Assembly: GCA_951813535.1 (NCBI GenBank)
Contig: OX638345.1
Location: forward strand, 2,663,158-2,727,157
DNA from: an uncultured Dehalococcoidia bacterium
Lineage (GTDB): Bacteria > Chloroflexota > Dehalococcoidia > Lucifugimonadales > UBA3495
DNA length: 64,000 nucleotides
Direction of reading: 5' to 3'
Below the pieces are notes generated by a model. That model was not told where the DNA came from. It worked only from the letters and a program-made list of their open reading frames with translations, and ran no database searches. The stretch's first letter is position 1. The number at the start of each line of letters is the position of its first letter. Shown here piece after piece: positions 8,789-19,730 of the stretch. Position numbers and translations under genes: made by a program.

Positions 8789-9655
8789 ATGACACGCACC
8801 ATCGAAGACATCGTTCTCGACCACGACCGACGCGGCATCGGCGCATTGCGCCCCCACGTGCCGCCGGACTTCTGCAGCCAGGCCGCCCGCTACCTGCTGG
8901 ACCATCCCGGACCGGTGATCATCACCACCGGCTTCTACATTTTGATGAGCGACGCGCCTGAAACCGACGGCCCGCCCGGAGCATTCGCCATTGGCGACGC
9001 CGTGCGCAGCCTCGGGCATCCGGTGGTCCACCTGGCGGACGCGCCGGTGGCCGGCATGATGTCCTCCTGGCTGGGCCGTTCCGGCGACCCGTCGCGCGTG
9101 CTCGATTTCCCCATCTCCGCCGATGCGGCGAGTAACGACGAGTTCGTTGCTGGCATCGCCACGGAATTTCAACCGGCTTTGGTCATCTCTATCGAGCGCT
9201 GTTCGCCCGATGCCGACGGGATTTACCGCAATATGCGCGGCCGCGACATCTCCCCTCAGACCGCGCGTATCGACCGTCTTTTCGGCCTCGGACTCCCGTC
9301 CGTTGGGATTGGCGACGGCGGCAACGAAATCGGCATGGGCAATCTGGCTGACGTGGTCGCCAAAGCCGATCAACTGCCCGACAGCCCGGCCGTCGTTGGC
9401 TGCGACCGGCTCATCATATCCAGCACTTCCAACTGGGGCGGCTACGGATTGGTCGCCGCCCTGTCCCTGGAGGTTGGCCGCAACCTGCTCCCGGATGTCG
9501 ACACCGACGCCGATTGCATCCGTTTCCTCGTGGACGCTGGGGCAGTAAGCGGGGTCAGCGGCGAGCACGACTATCTGGTCGACGAATTCACCCTGGACGA
9601 GAACGCCGCCGTGTTGAAGGAATTGCACGATCTAGTGAAACTTAGTTTAGAGTAA
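8789..9655 (+). CDS. DUF4392 family protein (C-terminal-type half of D-glutamate cyclase)
   Basis: 288 residues. It contains GPVIITTGFYI near residue 40, ALVISIERCSPDADGIYRNM near 130, and GLPSVGIGDGGNEIGMGNLA near 170, all typical of the DUF4392 domain that forms the C-terminal part of eukaryotic D-glutamate cyclase. The GIGDGGNEIGMG loop is rich in Gly and Asp and is probably the active-site or metal-binding loop. It follows the DUF1445 gene by 12 bases with a CGGAG ribosome site, so the two products probably act together in D-amino-acid breakdown. I see nothing missing or broken. Confidence 0.85.
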   Translation: MTRTIEDIVLDHDRRGIGALRPHVPPDFCSQAARYLLDHPGPVIITTGFYILMSDAPETDGPPGAFAIGDAVRSLGHPVVHLADAPVAGMMSSWLGRSGDPSRVLDFPISADAASNDEFVAGIATEFQPALVISIERCSPDADGIYRNMRGRDISPQTARIDRLFGLGLPSVGIGDGGNEIGMGNLADVVAKADQLPDSPAVVGCDRLIISSTSNWGGYGLVAALSLEVGRNLLPDVDTDADCIRFLVDAGAVSGVSGEHDYLVDEFTLDENAAVLKELHDLVKLSLE

Positions 9656-9878: not shown

Positions 9879-11000
9879 ATGGGTAGCTGCAAACACTGCG
9901 GCCAGAAAGCCGGCTTCCTGCGCCGCAGTCACAAGGACTGTGACAACACTCACCAGGCCGGCCGTCAGCGGATGGTCGCGATGGTCGCTCAGGCGGCAGG
10001 TCAGTCCCATTTCAGCGAAGACGCGCTGCTGGGCGACCTCGAAACCATCGCCGCCGGTTCCTACATCGACGATGATGGGATCCGCGCCGCCATCGCGGAG
10101 GGCTGGCATCAGGCGGTGCGTGAGGGCTTGGCCGACGGCATCCTCACGCAGGACGAGGAAGCCCGGCTGAGGGATTTCCGCGAGCAGTTCACCATCGAAG
10201 AGCAAAACAAAGCGGCTCACACTGCCGTTGCCGATCTGGATCGCGCCGCCAGGGACCGGGTCATGCTGGACGCCCGCCTGGCAGCCCTTGCCACCACGCC
10301 GGGCGACGACCACCTGGATGACCTCGCCGATACTCTCGAAGCATCGGAGTTTTCAGTCGCCGAGCGCAGGCTGCTGCTGATCCAGGCCTGGGAGGCCGCG
10401 GTCGAAGGCTCCCTCGAAGACGGCGTGCTGTCACTGGACGAGGAAAACGCGCTAATTCGCTACCTGCGGAGGTTCGACCTCGAGCAGCGAGACGTCGACG
10501 CCAACGGCGCCTACCACAACATGATCAAGTCAGCGGTCATCCGAGAGGCGGCCGAGGGCTTGATCCCCGAACGGCTCGGCGAGTTGCCGCCGATCCCCTT
10601 CAACCTGATGAAGTCCGAGCAATTGGTGTGGGTCATCGATGGTGTGGATTACTACGAGGTCAAGACCCGACGGGAACGGCGCGGCACTTCGCACGGCGTG
10701 AGCATCCGCGTCGCCAAGGGCCTGTACTACCGTCCCAGCACTTTCAGCAGCCGGCCCGTGGAGTGGGAGGAAACCGTCCACGAGGACACCGGGATACTGG
10801 GTGTGACCAGCAAGCACATCTACTTCCACGGGCCACGCAAACGGTTCCGCATCCGCTACGACCGCATCGTGTCCTTCGACCCCTACCAGGACGGGATCGG
10901 GGTGATGCGCGACGCCCAGAACGCCAGGCCGCAGACCTTCCTCACCGGCGACGGCTGGTTCATCTTCAACCTCGTCACCAACCTGGCGCATCATTGGTAG
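9879..11000 (+). CDS. Zinc-ribbon protein with duplicated helical repeat and a C-terminal beta-rich domain, unknown function
   Basis: 373 residues. The N-terminus has one CxxC knuckle (CKHCGQKAG) and a further Cys at residue 21 in KDCDNTH. Residues about 71-109 and 165-203 are an internal duplication: both contain W-x2-AV, a G-L-x-DG-(I/V)-L turn, D-EE and an F-x-(I/L)-EQ end, resembling TerB-like acidic helical units. Residues from about 240 to the end are beta-strand rich with basic patches and could be a PH/GRAM-like lipid or protein binding fold. The last 33 codons recur as a fragment at 11864-11962. I do not assign a function. It is paired with the small membrane protein just upstream. 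Confidence 0.75.
   Translation: MGSCKHCGQKAGFLRRSHKDCDNTHQAGRQRMVAMVAQAAGQSHFSEDALLGDLETIAAGSYIDDDGIRAAIAEGWHQAVREGLADGILTQDEEARLRDFREQFTIEEQNKAAHTAVADLDRAARDRVMLDARLAALATTPGDDHLDDLADTLEASEFSVAERRLLLIQAWEAAVEGSLEDGVLSLDEENALIRYLRRFDLEQRDVDANGAYHNMIKSAVIREAAEGLIPERLGELPPIPFNLMKSEQLVWVIDGVDYYEVKTRRERRGTSHGVSIRVAKGLYYRPSTFSSRPVEWEETVHEDTGILGVTSKHIYFHGPRKRFRIRYDRIVSFDPYQDGIGVMRDAQNARPQTFLTGDGWFIFNLVTNLAHHW
10902..11000 (+). repeat. 99-bp direct repeat, copy 1 (3' end of the zinc-ribbon gene)
   Basis: This stretch encodes the last 32 residues and stop codon of the zinc-ribbon protein. It matches 11864-11962 at 93 of 99 positions, with most differences in the last dozen bases. The two copies are in the same orientation and enclose 863 bases that contain an Uma2-family gene. 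Confidence 0.9.
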
Positions 11001-11048
11001 CGCTCTGTCACGCAGATTGGCCTGTCCGGGAGCCTCGAGCTCAGGCCG

Positions 11049-11765
11049 TCAGGAGTTCAGTTGCCGGAGTCGTTCTTCCAATTCGCTGACCCGAGCTTCG
11101 GCGCGAAGACGCTGCTCCCGTTCCGCGTCAGCTAGGTTGCGCTGGTCGTCATAGGTCAGGATGTGCCGTCCGGTAGACGGGTCATACCATCCCAGCTGAC
11201 CGTGCTCCCACCGTAGATGCAGGTCCAGAGCCGCGCTGTATCCTTGCAGAATGCCCGCTTCGACATTCTCAACGTCAATGGGTTCGTATCGTCCATTGAC
11301 CAGCCTGTCTCCGGCCAGCCGCGCCCCGTGGTACCCTCCGGTTTTATCAAAGCGCCAGTATTCCAGTATGCCCATCGCGGCGTATTCTTCTCTCTTCTCG
11401 TTCACGTCTATGGATGCCGTACTCGCCGAAGCGACTTCCATCGCGAAATCCGGCGGCTTCCCCTGCTCCGATATGATGTACCCATTGCTGGCCTCGTAGG
11501 CTGCCGGGTCCACTTCAAAAGCCACGAACAGGTCAGGCCGGCGCGCTCGGCTCTTGTCGAAATAGGGATGGGGAACTATCCAACGATCAGCCTCCACCAG
11601 CGTCGTTTCCGGGTTGCCAAGATGGATGGCCAAGTAATGAGACCCGCCGGTCTTGAACAGGTGGTCGTATTGAGTCATCTCGTCGGGTTCCCGCTGGGGC
11701 GGATCCGGCAATCGGAAGCGCCCCGGAGATTGGGGCGTCTTTGAAGTGGCGTCGGCGGCGGTCAT
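11049..11765 (-). CDS. Uma2 family (DUF820) PD-(D/E)XK nuclease-like protein
   Basis: 238 residues. It carries the family pattern of a PD motif (RRPDLFVAF), a second block ending PPDFAMEVASAS with the acidic residue, then NEKREEYAAMGILEYWRFD. The last 40 residues form a charged coiled coil (ADAEREQRLRAEARVSELEE). The family has a restriction-endonuclease-like fold, but activity is rarely demonstrated. The start has a strong CGGAGGT site. The gene lies wholly between the two copies of a 99-bp repeat, so it may have arrived with a duplication of its neighbour. A second, diverged Uma2 gene lies on the other side of uvrB. Confidence 0.85.
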   Translation of the reverse strand: MTAADATSKTPQSPGRFRLPDPPQREPDEMTQYDHLFKTGGSHYLAIHLGNPETTLVEADRWIVPHPYFDKSRARRPDLFVAFEVDPAAYEASNGYIISEQGKPPDFAMEVASASTASIDVNEKREEYAAMGILEYWRFDKTGGYHGARLAGDRLVNGRYEPIDVENVEAGILQGYSAALDLHLRWEHGQLGWYDPSTGRHILTYDDQRNLADAEREQRLRAEARVSELEERLRQLNS

Positions 11766-11863
11766 ACTGGACCTCCGGGGCAGGGCTCGGATGTGTAGTT
11801 CGTACTGGCGATAGTTTGCTACGTTGCGGTCAAATCCTCGTGTCTCCCGGCAAGTCGTTAGCC

Positions 11864-11962
11864 ATGATGCGCGACGCCCAGACCGCCAGGCCGCAGACCT
11901 TCCTCACCGGCGACGGCTGGTTCATCTTCAACCTCGTCACCAACCTGGCCCAGCGCTGGTAG
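11864..11962 (+). pseudogene. 99-bp direct repeat, copy 2: orphan 3' end of the zinc-ribbon gene
   Basis: It reads MMRDAQTARPQTFLTGDGWF and on to NLAQRW then stop, matching the C-terminus of the protein ending at 11000. The frame upstream is short (73 codons in all) and bears no resemblance to the rest of that gene, so this is a remnant. It ends three bases before the uvrB stop codon on the other strand. It could be the tail of a second gene copy that was largely deleted, or a duplication made when the Uma2 segment was inserted. Confidence 0.85.
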
Positions 11963-11964
11963 GC

Positions 11965-13971
11965 TTAGCCGCCGGCAACCGCCATCATCTTCTCCTCGGT
12001 GACGATGATCTTCTTCAGTTCCAGCATCTCGTCCCGCAGGTGGGCCGCCTTCTCGAATTCCAGAGACTTGGCGGCCTCTTTCATCTGGAACTCCAGGTCC
12101 TTGATCACCCGGTACATGTCGTCCCGCGACATCTCCTCCCGGGCCACCTGGTACGAGGCTTTGGTCTCCGCGACCCCGCGCAGGCCCTCGGTGATGTCAC
12201 GCACCGCCTTGTGGATCGACTGCGGCTCGATGCCGTGGCGCTCGTTGTGCGCTCCCTGAATCGCCCGTCGACGGTAGGTCTCGTCGATCGCGTTCTGCAT
12301 CGAGTCGGTCACCCGGTCAGCGTACATGATCACGTGCCCGGACGCGTGGCGGGCGGCGCGACCAACGGTTTGGATGAGCGACGTGGTCGACCGCAGGTAT
12401 CCTTCTTTGTCGGCGTCCAGGATCGCAACGAGGCTCACCTCGGGCAGGTCCAGGCCCTCCCGCAGCAGGTTGATGCCCACCACCACGTCATAGATGCCCA
12501 GGCGTAAGTCCCGCAGTATCTCCACCCGGTTCAGGGTCTCGATGTCAGAGTGCAGGTAGTGATTGCGAATGCCCGCCTCCGACAGGTAATCGGCCAGCTC
12601 CTCCGCCATGCGTTTGGTCAGCGTGGTCACCAGGACCCGCTCCTGCTGGTCTATGCGCTCGCGGATCTCGTGCAACAGGTCGTCGATCTGACCGTCGGTG
12701 GGTTTGACCTCTATGGTCGGATCCAGCAACCCGGTGGGACGGATCACCTGCTCCACGATGGTGCTGGTGCGCTCCAGCTCCAGCGGGCCGGGCGTCGCCG
12801 ACACGTACACCACCTGGTTGATGTGCTCTTCGAACTCCTGGAAGTGCAGCGGCCGGTTGTCCAGCGCCGACGGCAGGCGGAACCCGAACTCAACCAGCGT
12901 GGTCTTCCGCGAGATGTCGCCGTTGTACATTCCGCGCACCTGGGGCAGCGTCATGTGCGACTCGTCAACGAACATCAGGTAGTCGTCAGGGAAGTAGTCC
13001 AGCAGCGTCCACGGCGGACTTCCTGCCGGCCGCCGCGACAGGTGACGGGCGTAGTTCTCCACGCCGGCGCAGAAGCCGGTCTCGTCCAGCATCTCCATGT
13101 CGTAGCGCGTGCGCTGCTCCAGGCGCTGCGCCTCCAGCAACTTACCCTGCTGCCGGAGCCAATCCACCCGCTCCTTCATCTCGGCGTCGATGTCGATCAG
13201 GGCCGCATCCAGCTTCTCCCGGCTGGTCACGAAGTGCTTGGCGGGATATACGGAAAACTCACTCCGTTCGTTGAGCACTTCCCCGGTCAGCGTGTCCAGC
13301 GTGAGGATGCGCTCGACCTCGTCCCCAAAGAACTGGATCCGCACCGCGAATTCCTCATACGCCGGCACGATCTCTAGGGTGTCTCCCCGCACGGTGAACC
13401 GGCCGCGCGCCAGGTCGGTATCGTTGCGCTCGTATTGCATGTCGATCAGCTGACGCAGCAACGCCCGTCGGTTGTACTCCTCGCCCACCTCGACCCTGGC
13501 CACCATCTCGAAGTAGTCCGACGGGTCACCCAGACCATAGATGCACGACACAGAGGCCACGATCAGCGTGTCCCGCCGTGTCAGCAACGAGGTGGTGGAC
13601 GCCAGCCGCAGCTTGTCCAGTTCCTCGTTGACGCTGCTGTCCTTCTCGATGTACGTGTCGGTGCGCGGGATATACGCTTCCGGTTGGTAGTAATCGTAGT
13701 AGGAGACGAAGTACTCCACGGCGTTGTGCGGGAAGAACTCCTTGAACTCCGTCGCCAACTGGGCCGCCAGCGTCTTGTTGTGCGCGATGACGATCGTGGG
13801 ACGCTGTACCTCTTGCACGATGTTCGCCATGGTGAAGGTCTTGCCGCTGCCCGTGACACCCAGCAGGGTCTGGTACCCCAGGCCCTCGCGCACACCCTCG
13901 GAAAGGCGATGCACGGCCTGCTCCTGGTCGCCCATCGTGCCGAAATCCGCTACCAGCTGAAAGTCAGGCAT
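11965..13971 (-). CDS. uvrB: Excinuclease ABC subunit B
   Basis: 668 residues, the standard UvrB length. It is the damage-verification helicase of nucleotide excision repair, working with UvrA and UvrC. Features in order: Walker [15 protein letters not shown] near residue 37, the beta-hairpin [20 protein letters not shown] that clamps the lesion, the DEAD-like VDESH, helicase motifs [20 protein letters not shown] and QTVGRAARH, and the C-terminal UVR motif ([19 protein letters not shown]) that binds UvrC. A good site, GGAGGA, precedes the ATG. uvrA and uvrC are not in the window. It is flanked on both sides by Uma2-family genes. Confidence 0.98.
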
Positions 13972-13983
13972 CGTTCCTCCAGA

Positions 13984-14712
13984 TTACGCTTCGCCCCGCA
14001 GACGGCGCAGTTCGGCTTCCATCTCTGCCATTCGCGCCTCCGCGGCTTGGAGGGCCGTCTCCGCCGCTTCACGAGCCTCCAGAAGCTCATGGTAGTCGGG
14101 CACCCACACATCTCTGACCGGATCGTAAAATCGTAATTTGCCAGCGTCCCAGCAGAGGTCCAAGCCCAACGCCGGGCTATGGCATCGCAGCATACCATCC
14201 GATCCCGGGGCAACCTCCATGGGGACGTACTCCCCGTTTTCCAAAAGTTCGCCCACCAGCGGCTCCCCGTAGTGCCGGCTGTCGGCCGTAGGATCGTAAC
14301 GCCAGTATTCACCAATGCCCAGGGACGCATACAGGTCCCGCTCACGGCCCAAGTCCGCCCGAGCTGTGCTCTCCGAACCAATCTCCATCACGAAGTCGGG
14401 AACCCGGCCCAGGTGCCAGGTGAAGTAAGAGTTGTGAGGGAGGATCGCATCTCTGGTCAGGCCAAATGTAACGTGGCAATCCGGCGCCACGACGGCCCTG
14501 CGGTTCCCTTCCTCGTAGTACAGGAACGTGTTCCCGGTGACTATTACGTCGTAATGCTGCTCCAGGTAGGCCCGCAAAACCGGGGTGACTCTCCAAAAAC
14601 ACGGTTCCTGTTCCAATCCGTCGGGTAAGGGGAGGCCATCCTCGTCGGGATAACGAATGCCATTGAACACGTTGGTTTGCGCGGACAACGGGCGCGGCTT
14701 GGATGTTGTCAT
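13984..14712 (-). CDS. Uma2 family (DUF820) PD-(D/E)XK nuclease-like protein, second copy
   Basis: 242 residues with the same plan as the Uma2 gene on the other side of uvrB: VAPDCHVTFG, VPDFVMEIGSESTARADLGR, then ERDLYASLGIGEYWRYDP, and a long C-terminal coiled coil (about 205-240) rich in Ala, Glu and Arg. The two proteins are clearly paralogous in layout but diverged in sequence. This gene ends 12 bases before uvrB, so uvrB is probably read from the same transcript. A TATAAT hexamer on the minus strand at 14774-14779, about 60 bases upstream, may be its promoter. Nuclease activity is unproven. Confidence 0.83.
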   Translation of the reverse strand: MTTSKPRPLSAQTNVFNGIRYPDEDGLPLPDGLEQEPCFWRVTPVLRAYLEQHYDVIVTGNTFLYYEEGNRRAVVAPDCHVTFGLTRDAILPHNSYFTWHLGRVPDFVMEIGSESTARADLGRERDLYASLGIGEYWRYDPTADSRHYGEPLVGELLENGEYVPMEVAPGSDGMLRCHSPALGLDLCWDAGKLRFYDPVRDVWVPDYHELLEAREAAETALQAAEARMAEMEAELRRLRGEA

Positions 14713-18805: not shown

Positions 18806-19226
18806 GAAACACCCTGACCACGACGACGGCCGAGAAACGATCTGGGGGATCAGCCCGAATGACCGCCGCTGGTTCCAGGCGATGACACTGGTTGGCGGTA
18901 ACATCGGGGCCATCACCGTGACTTGGTTGTCGCTGAATTACCGCACCGGCAATCAGACCCCAGACGCCTTCGCGCTCGACATATTACTGGGGATCGGCGC
19001 CAGTTTCGTTGCTGCCGGCTTTATATCCTGGAACTTGGTCCAGATAAAGGAGTTGACAATGGCAATTGCAGATTGGATCAGAGAGGCCACTGAAAGGCGC
19101 CGGCAGAGAATACGTGAGGAGGGGCGCGCAGAGGGCCGCGCGGAAGGCTACAAAATGGGCTACGATGATGCCCAACGGGGCAAACCGCGACAAACGTCTA
19201 TTGAAAAACGTGAATCCGAACGCTGA
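18804..19226 (+). CDS. Small membrane protein with charged repeat tail, unknown function
   Basis: 140 residues. After a polar N-terminus come two hydrophobic segments (about 27-46 and 57-78), then a basic, helical cytoplasmic tail with a short repeat RAEGRAEGYKMGYDDAQRGK. Such GRAEG/GYxxG tails occur on several membrane and nuclease-associated proteins and are probably coiled-coil. I do not recognise the family. It lies between two paralogous VOC genes, with a palindrome covering its start codon. No ribosome site is visible, so translation may be leaderless. Confidence 0.6.
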   Translation: MKHPDHDDGRETIWGISPNDRRWFQAMTLVGGNIGAITVTWLSLNYRTGNQTPDAFALDILLGIGASFVAAGFISWNLVQIKELTMAIADWIREATERRRQRIREEGRAEGRAEGYKMGYDDAQRGKPRQTSIEKRESER

Positions 19227-19277
19227 CCGTGCCCTGGGGAGTCAATCTCCGGCTTCTCAACATAAGGAGCCAGTACC

Positions 19278-19730
19278 ATGCCGATGAATGCCAGCGGCGT
19301 TTCCCACATTGCCATTTGCGTCCGGGACCTCGACGTCTCGTTGCAGTTCTACTGCGACGCGCTCGGGATGTCCATCGTCAGTGACGTGATCCAGGACACC
19401 ACCACCGGAGGTCTGCCCCACGTCTACGCCCACAATCGGGCCACCCGCCGCCAGGTGCGCCTCGCTTACGCCGACGGCGCCAAGCCTACACTCACGATGA
19501 CCAGTCATCCCGGCGACAACCCGGATGGGGCGCCGATCAAACTCGACCAGGTTGGCATCAGCCACATCTCGTTCAGCGTCCCGGACCCCAAAGCTCTTGC
19601 CGAAAACCTGTCCTCACAGGGTGTTCCTCTTGCCGCGCCCATGGATGTGTGGACCAACGCCGAAGGACGGGTCGGCAGCTTCTACGTCTATGACCCGGAT
19701 GGCATCCTGGTCCAGTTCGACGCCGGCTGA
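19278..19730 (+). CDS. VOC family protein, copy B
   Basis: 150 residues, closely similar to the VOC protein at 18294 along its whole length (MPMNASGVSHIAICVRDLDV, GGLPHVYAHNRATRRQ, DQVGISHISFSVPDPKALAE, YVYDPDGILVQFDAG). The same putative metal ligands are kept. A clear AAGGAG site precedes the ATG. Small VOC enzymes include glyoxalases, fosfomycin-type resistance proteins and extradiol dioxygenases; nothing in the sequence decides among them. It is a tandem paralogue separated from copy A by a membrane-protein gene. Confidence 0.9.
   Translation: MPMNASGVSHIAICVRDLDVSLQFYCDALGMSIVSDVIQDTTTGGLPHVYAHNRATRRQVRLAYADGAKPTLTMTSHPGDNPDGAPIKLDQVGISHISFSVPDPKALAENLSSQGVPLAAPMDVWTNAEGRVGSFYVYDPDGILVQFDAG

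What the first reader, a model, noticed from the sequence alone, without database searches (positions are those of the whole stretch)
10902..11962. 99-bp direct repeats flank an Uma2 gene
The 3' end of the zinc-ribbon gene is repeated at 11864-11962 (93 of 99 identical) with an Uma2-family gene in between. This points to insertion with duplication, or to a tandem gene duplication later replaced by the Uma2 segment. Recombination between the repeats could remove the Uma2 gene precisely and leave the zinc-ribbon gene intact.
Basis: partly seen in the sequence, partly recalled or inferred. Interest (0 to 1): 0.55.

Follow-up and report, generated by a model that had tools for sequence, protein, structure and literature searches.

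The report
Uma2 gene inserted with gene-end duplication
In a Chloroflexota bacterium a small nuclease-like gene sits between two copies of the last 98 letters of its neighbour gene, which most likely marks a past insertion that duplicated its target; similar scars around other small genes suggest this is one way such genes move.

Summary
In detail: the last 98 nt of a 373-aa zinc-ribbon-like gene (zr, 10903-11000) recur at 11865-11962 (93 identical), with one Uma2 gene (11049-11765, minus) between. Of 12 genus relatives with uvrB found, none has this arrangement: six have zr beside uvrB with one tail (four with 2-14 nt between stop codons), one keeps only a zr tail, five lack zr. The downstream copy is in the native place next to uvrB. 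Both copies share two bases absent from six orthologs, so the event happened in or near this lineage.

It is not unique. The same genome has a second Uma2 flanked by 111 nt of a CoA-transferase start, and three other gene termini duplicated around other inserts; a Uma2 in another genus has a duplicated peptidase end, and one relative a duplicated asnS-like end. This resembles "insertion with long target duplication" (order of 100 bp), reported for restriction-modification genes. Best reading: recombination-mediated insertion, one end guided by homology and the other illegitimate (or a single crossover), with Uma2 as cargo. Whether Uma2's nuclease drives it is open. New member of a known kind.

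The parts
8789..9655 (+). D-glutamate cyclase-like gene (PF14336), left neighbour of the locus
   Evidence: Pfam E 5.6e-65; found in the fetched stretch of 11 of 13 genus relatives
9879..11000 (+). zr: 373-aa zinc-ribbon-like gene whose 3' end is duplicated
   Evidence: ORF; full-length or nearly full-length homologs 54-88% identical in the family; C4, C7, H18, C21 invariant in 10 homologs
10903..11000 (+). R1: upstream repeat copy, 3' end of the full zr gene with its stop codon; bases at 10921, 10991 and 10994 are private among 6 orthologs
11001..11864 (.). inserted segment, 864 bp, not found at the zr-uvrB junction of the relatives
11049..11765 (-). Uma2-family gene, 238 aa, putative PD-(D/E)XK nuclease
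   Evidence: PF05685, E 5e-15; best DNA matches in 49 other genomes of the family about 73% identical
11865..11962 (+). R2: downstream repeat copy, headless 3' end of zr in its native place beside uvrB
   Evidence: same 2-nt spacing to the uvrB stop codon as in G006, G011 and G015
11965..13971 (-). uvrB, conserved right neighbour
   Evidence: Pfam UvrB models; 90-98% aa identity in 12 of 13 genus relatives
13984..14712 (-). second, distantly related Uma2 gene on the other side of uvrB; also there in G008, G009, G013 and G015
   Evidence: about 35% aa identity to the first Uma2

Best explanation
An 864-bp segment with one Uma2 gene inserted at the 3' end of zr, between zr and uvrB, and the event duplicated 98 nt of the zr 3' end. 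SHOWN: the two copies; the empty site in relatives; R2 as the copy in the native place; two bases shared only by R1 and R2; the same anatomy (gene terminus, other DNA, 65-133 nt partial copy of that terminus) at six further loci. INFERRED: the insertion used recombination rather than a dedicated transposase. Either one end of incoming DNA paired with the zr tail and the other was joined illegitimately (homology-facilitated illegitimate recombination, or one-ended invasion plus end joining), or a small circle carrying a zr tail and Uma2 integrated by a single crossover. Insertions that duplicate a whole gene terminus survive because the target gene stays intact. Uma2 is treated as cargo; a role of its nuclease in making the break is possible but untested.
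For: Empty sites: of 12 genus relatives with uvrB found, 6 have zr beside uvrB with one tail (2, 2, 11, 14, 184 and 891 nt between stop codons), 1 has only a zr tail, 5 lack zr, 0 have the window's arrangement. R2 is closer than R1 to 5 of 6 orthologs and ties with the sixth; R1 and R2 share 2 bases absent from all 6. Recurrence: L033 Uma2 with 111-nt CoA-transferase start; L094 Uma2 with 65-nt M42 peptidase end; L218 amidase end, 95 nt, around two genes; L264 nuoN-like end, 76 nt, around an aspartyl-protease gene; L283 dinB-like start, 87 nt; L371 asnS-like end, 133 nt, around a solute-binding-protein gene. At L218, in the cluster of 9 differing sites R2 matches G015 at 8 while R1 matches G011 at 8 and G013 at 7: the copies look like different allele lineages, as import by recombination predicts. 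G013 has pieces like both inserted genes between its amidase and asnS. No strong terminal inverted repeats in the insert; outside a 236-nt match within the Uma2 genes, the three Uma2 inserts share no detected similarity.
Against: R1, attached to the full gene, has 3 private changes and the stub R2 none; four of five differences lie within 7 nt. Duplication followed by drift predicts the reverse, though 5 against 0 is not decisive. At 10993 R1, not R2, has the commoner ortholog base (5 of 6). For the window itself the allele mosaic rests on two sites (10988, 10993). Over all 15 differing sites at L218, G015 matches R2 at 10 and R1 at 5, and G006 is mostly R1-like in the cluster. No donor with zr followed by this Uma2 was found. 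At the asnS-like locus the stub's differences are private and do not point to another lineage. Repeat lengths cluster (65-133 nt in 7 cases), tighter than a random illegitimate join should give. Competence and end-joining genes were not looked for.
Confidence: 0.6

Rival explanations
1. Nuclease-driven mobility: the Uma2 protein, a predicted PD-(D/E)XK nuclease, makes the break in the target and so promotes insertion of its own gene with a long duplication, as a homing-like selfish gene.
For: Three Uma2 genes in two genera and with three unrelated target genes show the scar. Uma2 is massively amplified: 68 matches in this genome, at least 150 in G017. Long target duplication is reported for restriction-modification genes (PMC3874152 passage).
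Against: The same scar surrounds genes not known as nucleases (aspartyl protease, solute-binding protein, DUF6575). The Uma2 excess is not significant: 2 of 155 Uma2 loci without the index case; the script used 2 of 156 against 3 of 1,503 other genes, an assumed number, Fisher P 0.07. No insertion-end similarity found among the three inserts.
Confidence: 0.13
2. Tandem duplication of the whole zr gene, after which Uma2 replaced the 5' part of the second copy and left its last 98 nt.
For: Gives the same final map. G015 shows that zr can be reduced to a 44-codon 3' stub in place.
Against: No relative among 13 in the genus has two full zr copies. It needs two independent events, and would have to be repeated at six other loci with similarly short stubs (inference).
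Confidence: 0.15
3. Site-specific integration at a gene end: a small element mobilised by an integrase supplied in trans brings a replacement 3' end, and the original end is displaced downstream.
For: The element-proximal copy R1 is the deviant one and R2 the native one. Integrative elements that restore a gene 3' end are well known (recalled).
Against: The one gene called in the insert is Uma2 (overlapping antisense ORFs were not tested for families). Targets are unrelated genes and include 5' ends (CoA-transferase, dinB-like). No insert-end similarity found.
Confidence: 0.07
4. Assembly or binning artefact.
For: Reads were not available.
Against: One 4.38-Mb contig. The copies are 5% different with a 2-nt native junction to uvrB on one side, and similar arrangements occur in other assemblies.
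Confidence: 0.03

Closest known systems
Insertion with long target duplication, described for restriction-modification genes in Helicobacter pylori (Nobusato et al. 2000, not read; described in PMC1643837, PMC3154945, PMC3874152, passages seen)
   Same: Gene absent from related genomes, inserted with a direct duplication of target DNA 'in the order of 100 bp', without a known mobile element; inferred from genome comparison.
   Different: Here the cargo is a solo Uma2 gene (or, elsewhere, genes not known as nucleases) in a Dehalococcoidia-type lineage, and BLAST identities of the copies range from 82% to 95%; at one locus they look like different allele lineages.
Homology-facilitated illegitimate recombination and the orphan gene ends it is proposed to leave in Vibrio T6SS and Rhs loci (PMC5361080, passages seen)
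   Same: Homology anchors one side, the other side is joined illegitimately, and old parts are displaced downstream of the new genes.
   Different: There the displaced parts are immunity genes or effector ends; here they are short tails or heads of ordinary genes whose full copy remains.
Single-crossover integration giving partial gene duplication in E. coli conjugation assays (PMC3240628, passages seen)
   Same: Foreign DNA flanked by a partial duplication of the target gene; 14 sequenced clones had 109 to 950 bp.
   Different: An engineered plasmid, not natural small inserts; no circle is known here.
Uma2/COG4636 genes of cyanobacteria (PMC2701414, one passage seen)
   Same: Predicted PD-(D/E)XK genes, highly abundant, mostly in cassettes of paralogs, as the arrays suggest.
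   Different: That passage does not discuss how single Uma2 genes enter new sites.

Membership tests
Insertion with long target duplication | Insert absent from the same site in related genomes | tested here: met
   0 of 12 genus relatives with uvrB found have a detected Uma2 between zr and uvrB; 6 have zr next to uvrB with one tail
Insertion with long target duplication | Insert flanked by a direct duplication of target DNA of about 100 bp | tested here: met
   98 nt, 93 identical; the tail is single in the relatives' loci
Insertion with long target duplication | Cargo is a restriction-modification system | tested here: inconclusive
   Cargo is Uma2, 'putative restriction endonuclease' in Pfam; no separate methyltransferase ORF beside it, only ORFs overlapping Uma2, which were not tested for families
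Homology-facilitated illegitimate recombination | One junction homologous, the other illegitimate, with a donor-type allele at the homologous side | tested here: inconclusive
   Supported at the amidase locus; at the window only two sites (10988, 10993) suggest it; the asnS-like locus gives no such sign
Uma2 family (PF05685) | Profile match above the curated cut-off | tested here: met
   55.8 bits against 27
Uma2 family (PF05685) | Nuclease activity | not testable with these tools
   No solved relative found by sequence at E <= 0.01; activity needs an assay
Classical transposon or insertion sequence | Terminal inverted repeats | tested here: not met
   Best candidate near the ends is a 14-nt pair at 86%, 25 and 14 nt inside the borders
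Classical transposon or insertion sequence | A transposase gene in the element | tested here: inconclusive
   The main ORF is Uma2; overlapping antisense ORFs (up to 175 aa) were not tested for families

The most novel reading that the evidence does not exclude
Uma2 genes are self-promoting, homing-like mobile genes: their PD-(D/E)XK nuclease opens gene termini and the repair duplicates about 100 nt of the target, which lets them enter 3' and 5' ends of important genes without harm and explains their expansion to 68 and at least 150 copies in two genomes of this group.
Probability: 0.1. Interest if true: 0.8.

Novelty: new member of a known kind. Interest (0 to 1): 0.5.

Why it matters
Uma2 genes are highly abundant in cyanobacteria (PMC2701414 passage) and in this Chloroflexota group, and the listings showed me no account of how single copies enter new sites. 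This locus and its relatives give polarised insertion scars, with empty sites, for that question. They also extend insertion with long target duplication, reported for restriction-modification genes, to an uncultured lineage and to cargo not known as nucleases, which points to a general recombination route for small accessory genes.

Tried and rejected
Uma2-specific signal: scanned all 68 Uma2 loci of the own genome, 28 loci from relatives found by DNA similarity to the insert, and 60 from six relatives, mostly with 1.5-kb flanks. Partial-gene repeats on both sides in 3 of 156, the index case included (2 of 68, 1 of 28, 0 of 60). Rows dropped: in the own genome weak pairs around or beside a Uma2 (L039, 41 nt, 80%; L031, 33 nt; L027 and L035, 37 nt, reaching into Uma2; L023, one side), and in relatives pairs on one side only (L074, L086, L092, L316); they were not examined further. 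34 of the 60 loci show some repeat, mostly long ones that I take for Uma2 paralog arrays (judged by length and place), which can hide a short flanking repeat. The excess over other genes is not significant (the number of other genes is an assumption).

R1 and R2 as one old duplication drifting apart: not excluded at the window; disfavoured at the amidase locus.

Donor search: in 10 zr loci outside this genome (G006, G009, G011, G014, G017, G018, G001, G003, G005, G049) no Uma2 match follows zr; in G010 the contig ends inside zr. The match list was cut. In G016 a Uma2 of 56% identity lies about 40 bp from uvrB and no zr was found; too distant to be the source.

Repeat pairs of the 1.66-Mb sample, 17 in all: 4 counted as gene-terminus cases (window, L218, L264, L283); L215 a duplicated small gene pair; L250 looks like two tRNA genes; L236 and four in L282 internal protein repeats; L217 and L265 paralogs; L222, L229, L242 and L275 not resolved. 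These labels come from reading translations. Of 9 pairs in 313 kb of relatives' loci only L371 8281-8413 was followed. The labels nuoN, dinB and asnS are recalled from translations, not profile-tested, and the nuoN-like and dinB-like genes run off the fetched stretch.

Structure of zr: mean pLDDT 65.7 and the duplicated tail mostly below 50, so no fold claim is made. Rfam on the dinB-like insert: nothing above gathering score.

Full report
WHAT IS THERE. The 98-nt direct repeat is real: 10903-11000, the last 98 nt of a 373-aa ORF with its stop codon, and 11865-11962, the same stretch without the rest of the gene, 93 of 98 identical. Between them lie 864 bp with one unbroken Uma2-family gene on the minus strand, 11049-11765 (PF05685, E 5e-15); ORFs overlapping it in other frames were not tested. 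Right of the second copy, after two bases, uvrB ends (11965-13971, minus). The 373-aa protein (zr) has no Pfam match above cut-off; four invariant Cys/His residues at its N-terminus in 10 homologs justify 'zinc-ribbon-like'.

THE EMPTY SITE. The own genome is a single 4.38-Mb contig. The named relatives of zr are Dehalococcoidia/SAR202/Chloroflexi MAGs (8 loci). In the genus, 13 relatives are held; uvrB was found in 12. Six have full zr beside uvrB (G006, G009, G011, G014, G017, G018; 2, 11, 2, 184, 891 and 14 nt between the stop codons), one (G015) has only the last 44 codons of zr, 2 nt from the uvrB stop, and five (G007, G008, G012, G013, G016) gave no zr match. In none was a second tail or a Uma2 detected between zr and uvrB. 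R2 has the native 2-nt spacing to uvrB of G006, G011 and G015, so R2 sits where the old 3' end was.

POLARITY. Over the 98 nt R2 is closer than R1 to 5 of 6 orthologs and ties with the sixth. Of the five differing positions R2 carries the commonest ortholog base at four; at 10993 R1 does (5 of 6). R1 has three private bases (10921, 10991, 10994), R2 none; both share two bases (10942, 10966) absent from six orthologs. The duplication therefore arose in, or was exchanged within, a population close to this lineage. Four of the five differences lie in 10988-10994. There R2 equals G006 and G015, while at 10988 and 10993 R1 has the bases of G009 and G017. This hints at a donor-type tail in R1 but is only two sites.

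NOT UNIQUE. I scanned all 68 Uma2 loci of the own genome, 28 loci of relatives found with the insert DNA and 60 more from six relatives. Three of 156 have a partial copy of a neighbouring gene so placed that the Uma2 lies between the copies: the window; L033, where 111 nt (89%) of the start of a CoA-transferase III gene stand upstream of the Uma2 and the full gene downstream; and L094 in another genus, where an M42 peptidase gene is followed by Uma2 and then a 65-nt (86%) copy of the peptidase end. A scan of 1.66 Mb of the own genome (window plus 80 stretches) gave 17 repeat pairs of 40-400 nt with gaps of 150-3000 nt. Four are a gene terminus with other DNA between the copies: the window; L218, amidase end, 95 nt, 86%, around an ORF without a Pfam match and a DUF6575 gene; L264, nuoN-like end, 76 nt, 84%, around an aspartyl-protease gene; L283, dinB-like start, 87 nt, 82%, around a dispersed repeat, with matching pieces in G015 (table only). 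In G006 an asnS-like end (133 nt, 87%) recurs after a solute-binding-protein gene. The names nuoN, dinB and asnS are recalled from translations.

ALLELES. At the amidase locus relatives give a test. In 7 of 13 (G007, G008, G009, G010, G012, G014, G016) asnS follows the amidase within about 200 nt, without the insert. R1 and R2 differ at 15 sites. In a cluster of nine, R2 agrees with G015 at 8, R1 with G011 at 8 and with G013 at 7. Over all 15, G011 agrees with R1 at 12 and with R2 at none; G015 agrees with R2 at 10 and with R1 at 5; G006 is mostly R1-like in the cluster. The two copies therefore look like different allele lineages, which a simple target duplication would not give and import of DNA carrying a related gene end would. 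G013 carries pieces similar to both inserted genes between its amidase and asnS, so a donor-like arrangement exists. The asnS-like stub, by contrast, has only private differences, 3 of them in its last 95 nt, so it is neutral on this point.

MECHANISM. No convincing terminal inverted repeats are in the insert, and apart from a 236-nt match inside the genes the three Uma2 inserts share no detected similarity. The best single reading is recombination-mediated insertion. A gene end supplies the homology, the other junction is illegitimate or the whole is a single crossover of a small circle, and the product survives because the full gene is kept. In E. coli an assay for illegitimate integration yielded mostly such partial duplications, 109 to 950 bp in 14 sequenced clones (PMC3240628, passages).

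COMPARISON WITH THE KNOWN. The pattern has a name: insertion with long target duplication, found for restriction-modification genes in Helicobacter (PMC1643837, passages; [quoted passage not shown] Of the original papers, Furuta 2010 is not held and Nobusato 2000 was not looked up; neither was read. Uma2 is a predicted PD-(D/E)XK nuclease noted for abundance and cassettes of paralogs in cyanobacteria (PMC2701414, passage). So this is a new member of a known kind, with a solo Uma2 as cargo and with other loci in the same lineage whose cargo is not known as a nuclease.

LIMITS. No reads, no strain-level data, no donor. The 1,503 background genes used for Fisher P 0.07 are an assumption, and that script used 156 instead of 155 loci. 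Uma2 arrays can hide flanking repeats, so the rate among Uma2 genes may be an underestimate.

Noticed in passing
own genome and G017: Uma2 genes are extremely amplified: 68 matches in the own genome and at least 150 (the scoring limit) in G017, many of them close together on one strand, as in arrays.
   Followed up: partly
window 13984-14712: A second Uma2 gene on the other side of uvrB is present in G008, G009, G013 and G015 but was not detected there in G006, G007, G011, G012, G014, G017 and G018; the uvrB neighbourhood is variable on both sides.
   Followed up: partly
L131 6243-6374 (G015): G015 keeps only the last 44 codons of zr next to uvrB, a stub without Uma2 and without the full gene.
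   Followed up: partly
L283 about 19057-19387: A dispersed repeat inside the dinB-like duplication recurs dozens of times in G017 and also in other relatives, in several at contig starts; no Rfam family above gathering score.
   Followed up: partly
L003 and L004 (own genome): Two zr-like paralogs share a similar downstream block with a small ORF, which by eye looks like a segmental duplication with mosaic borders.
   Followed up: no
window 11049-11765: The Uma2 protein matches PADLOC candidate phage-defence models PDC-S03 (E 4.5e-14); a label only.
   Followed up: no
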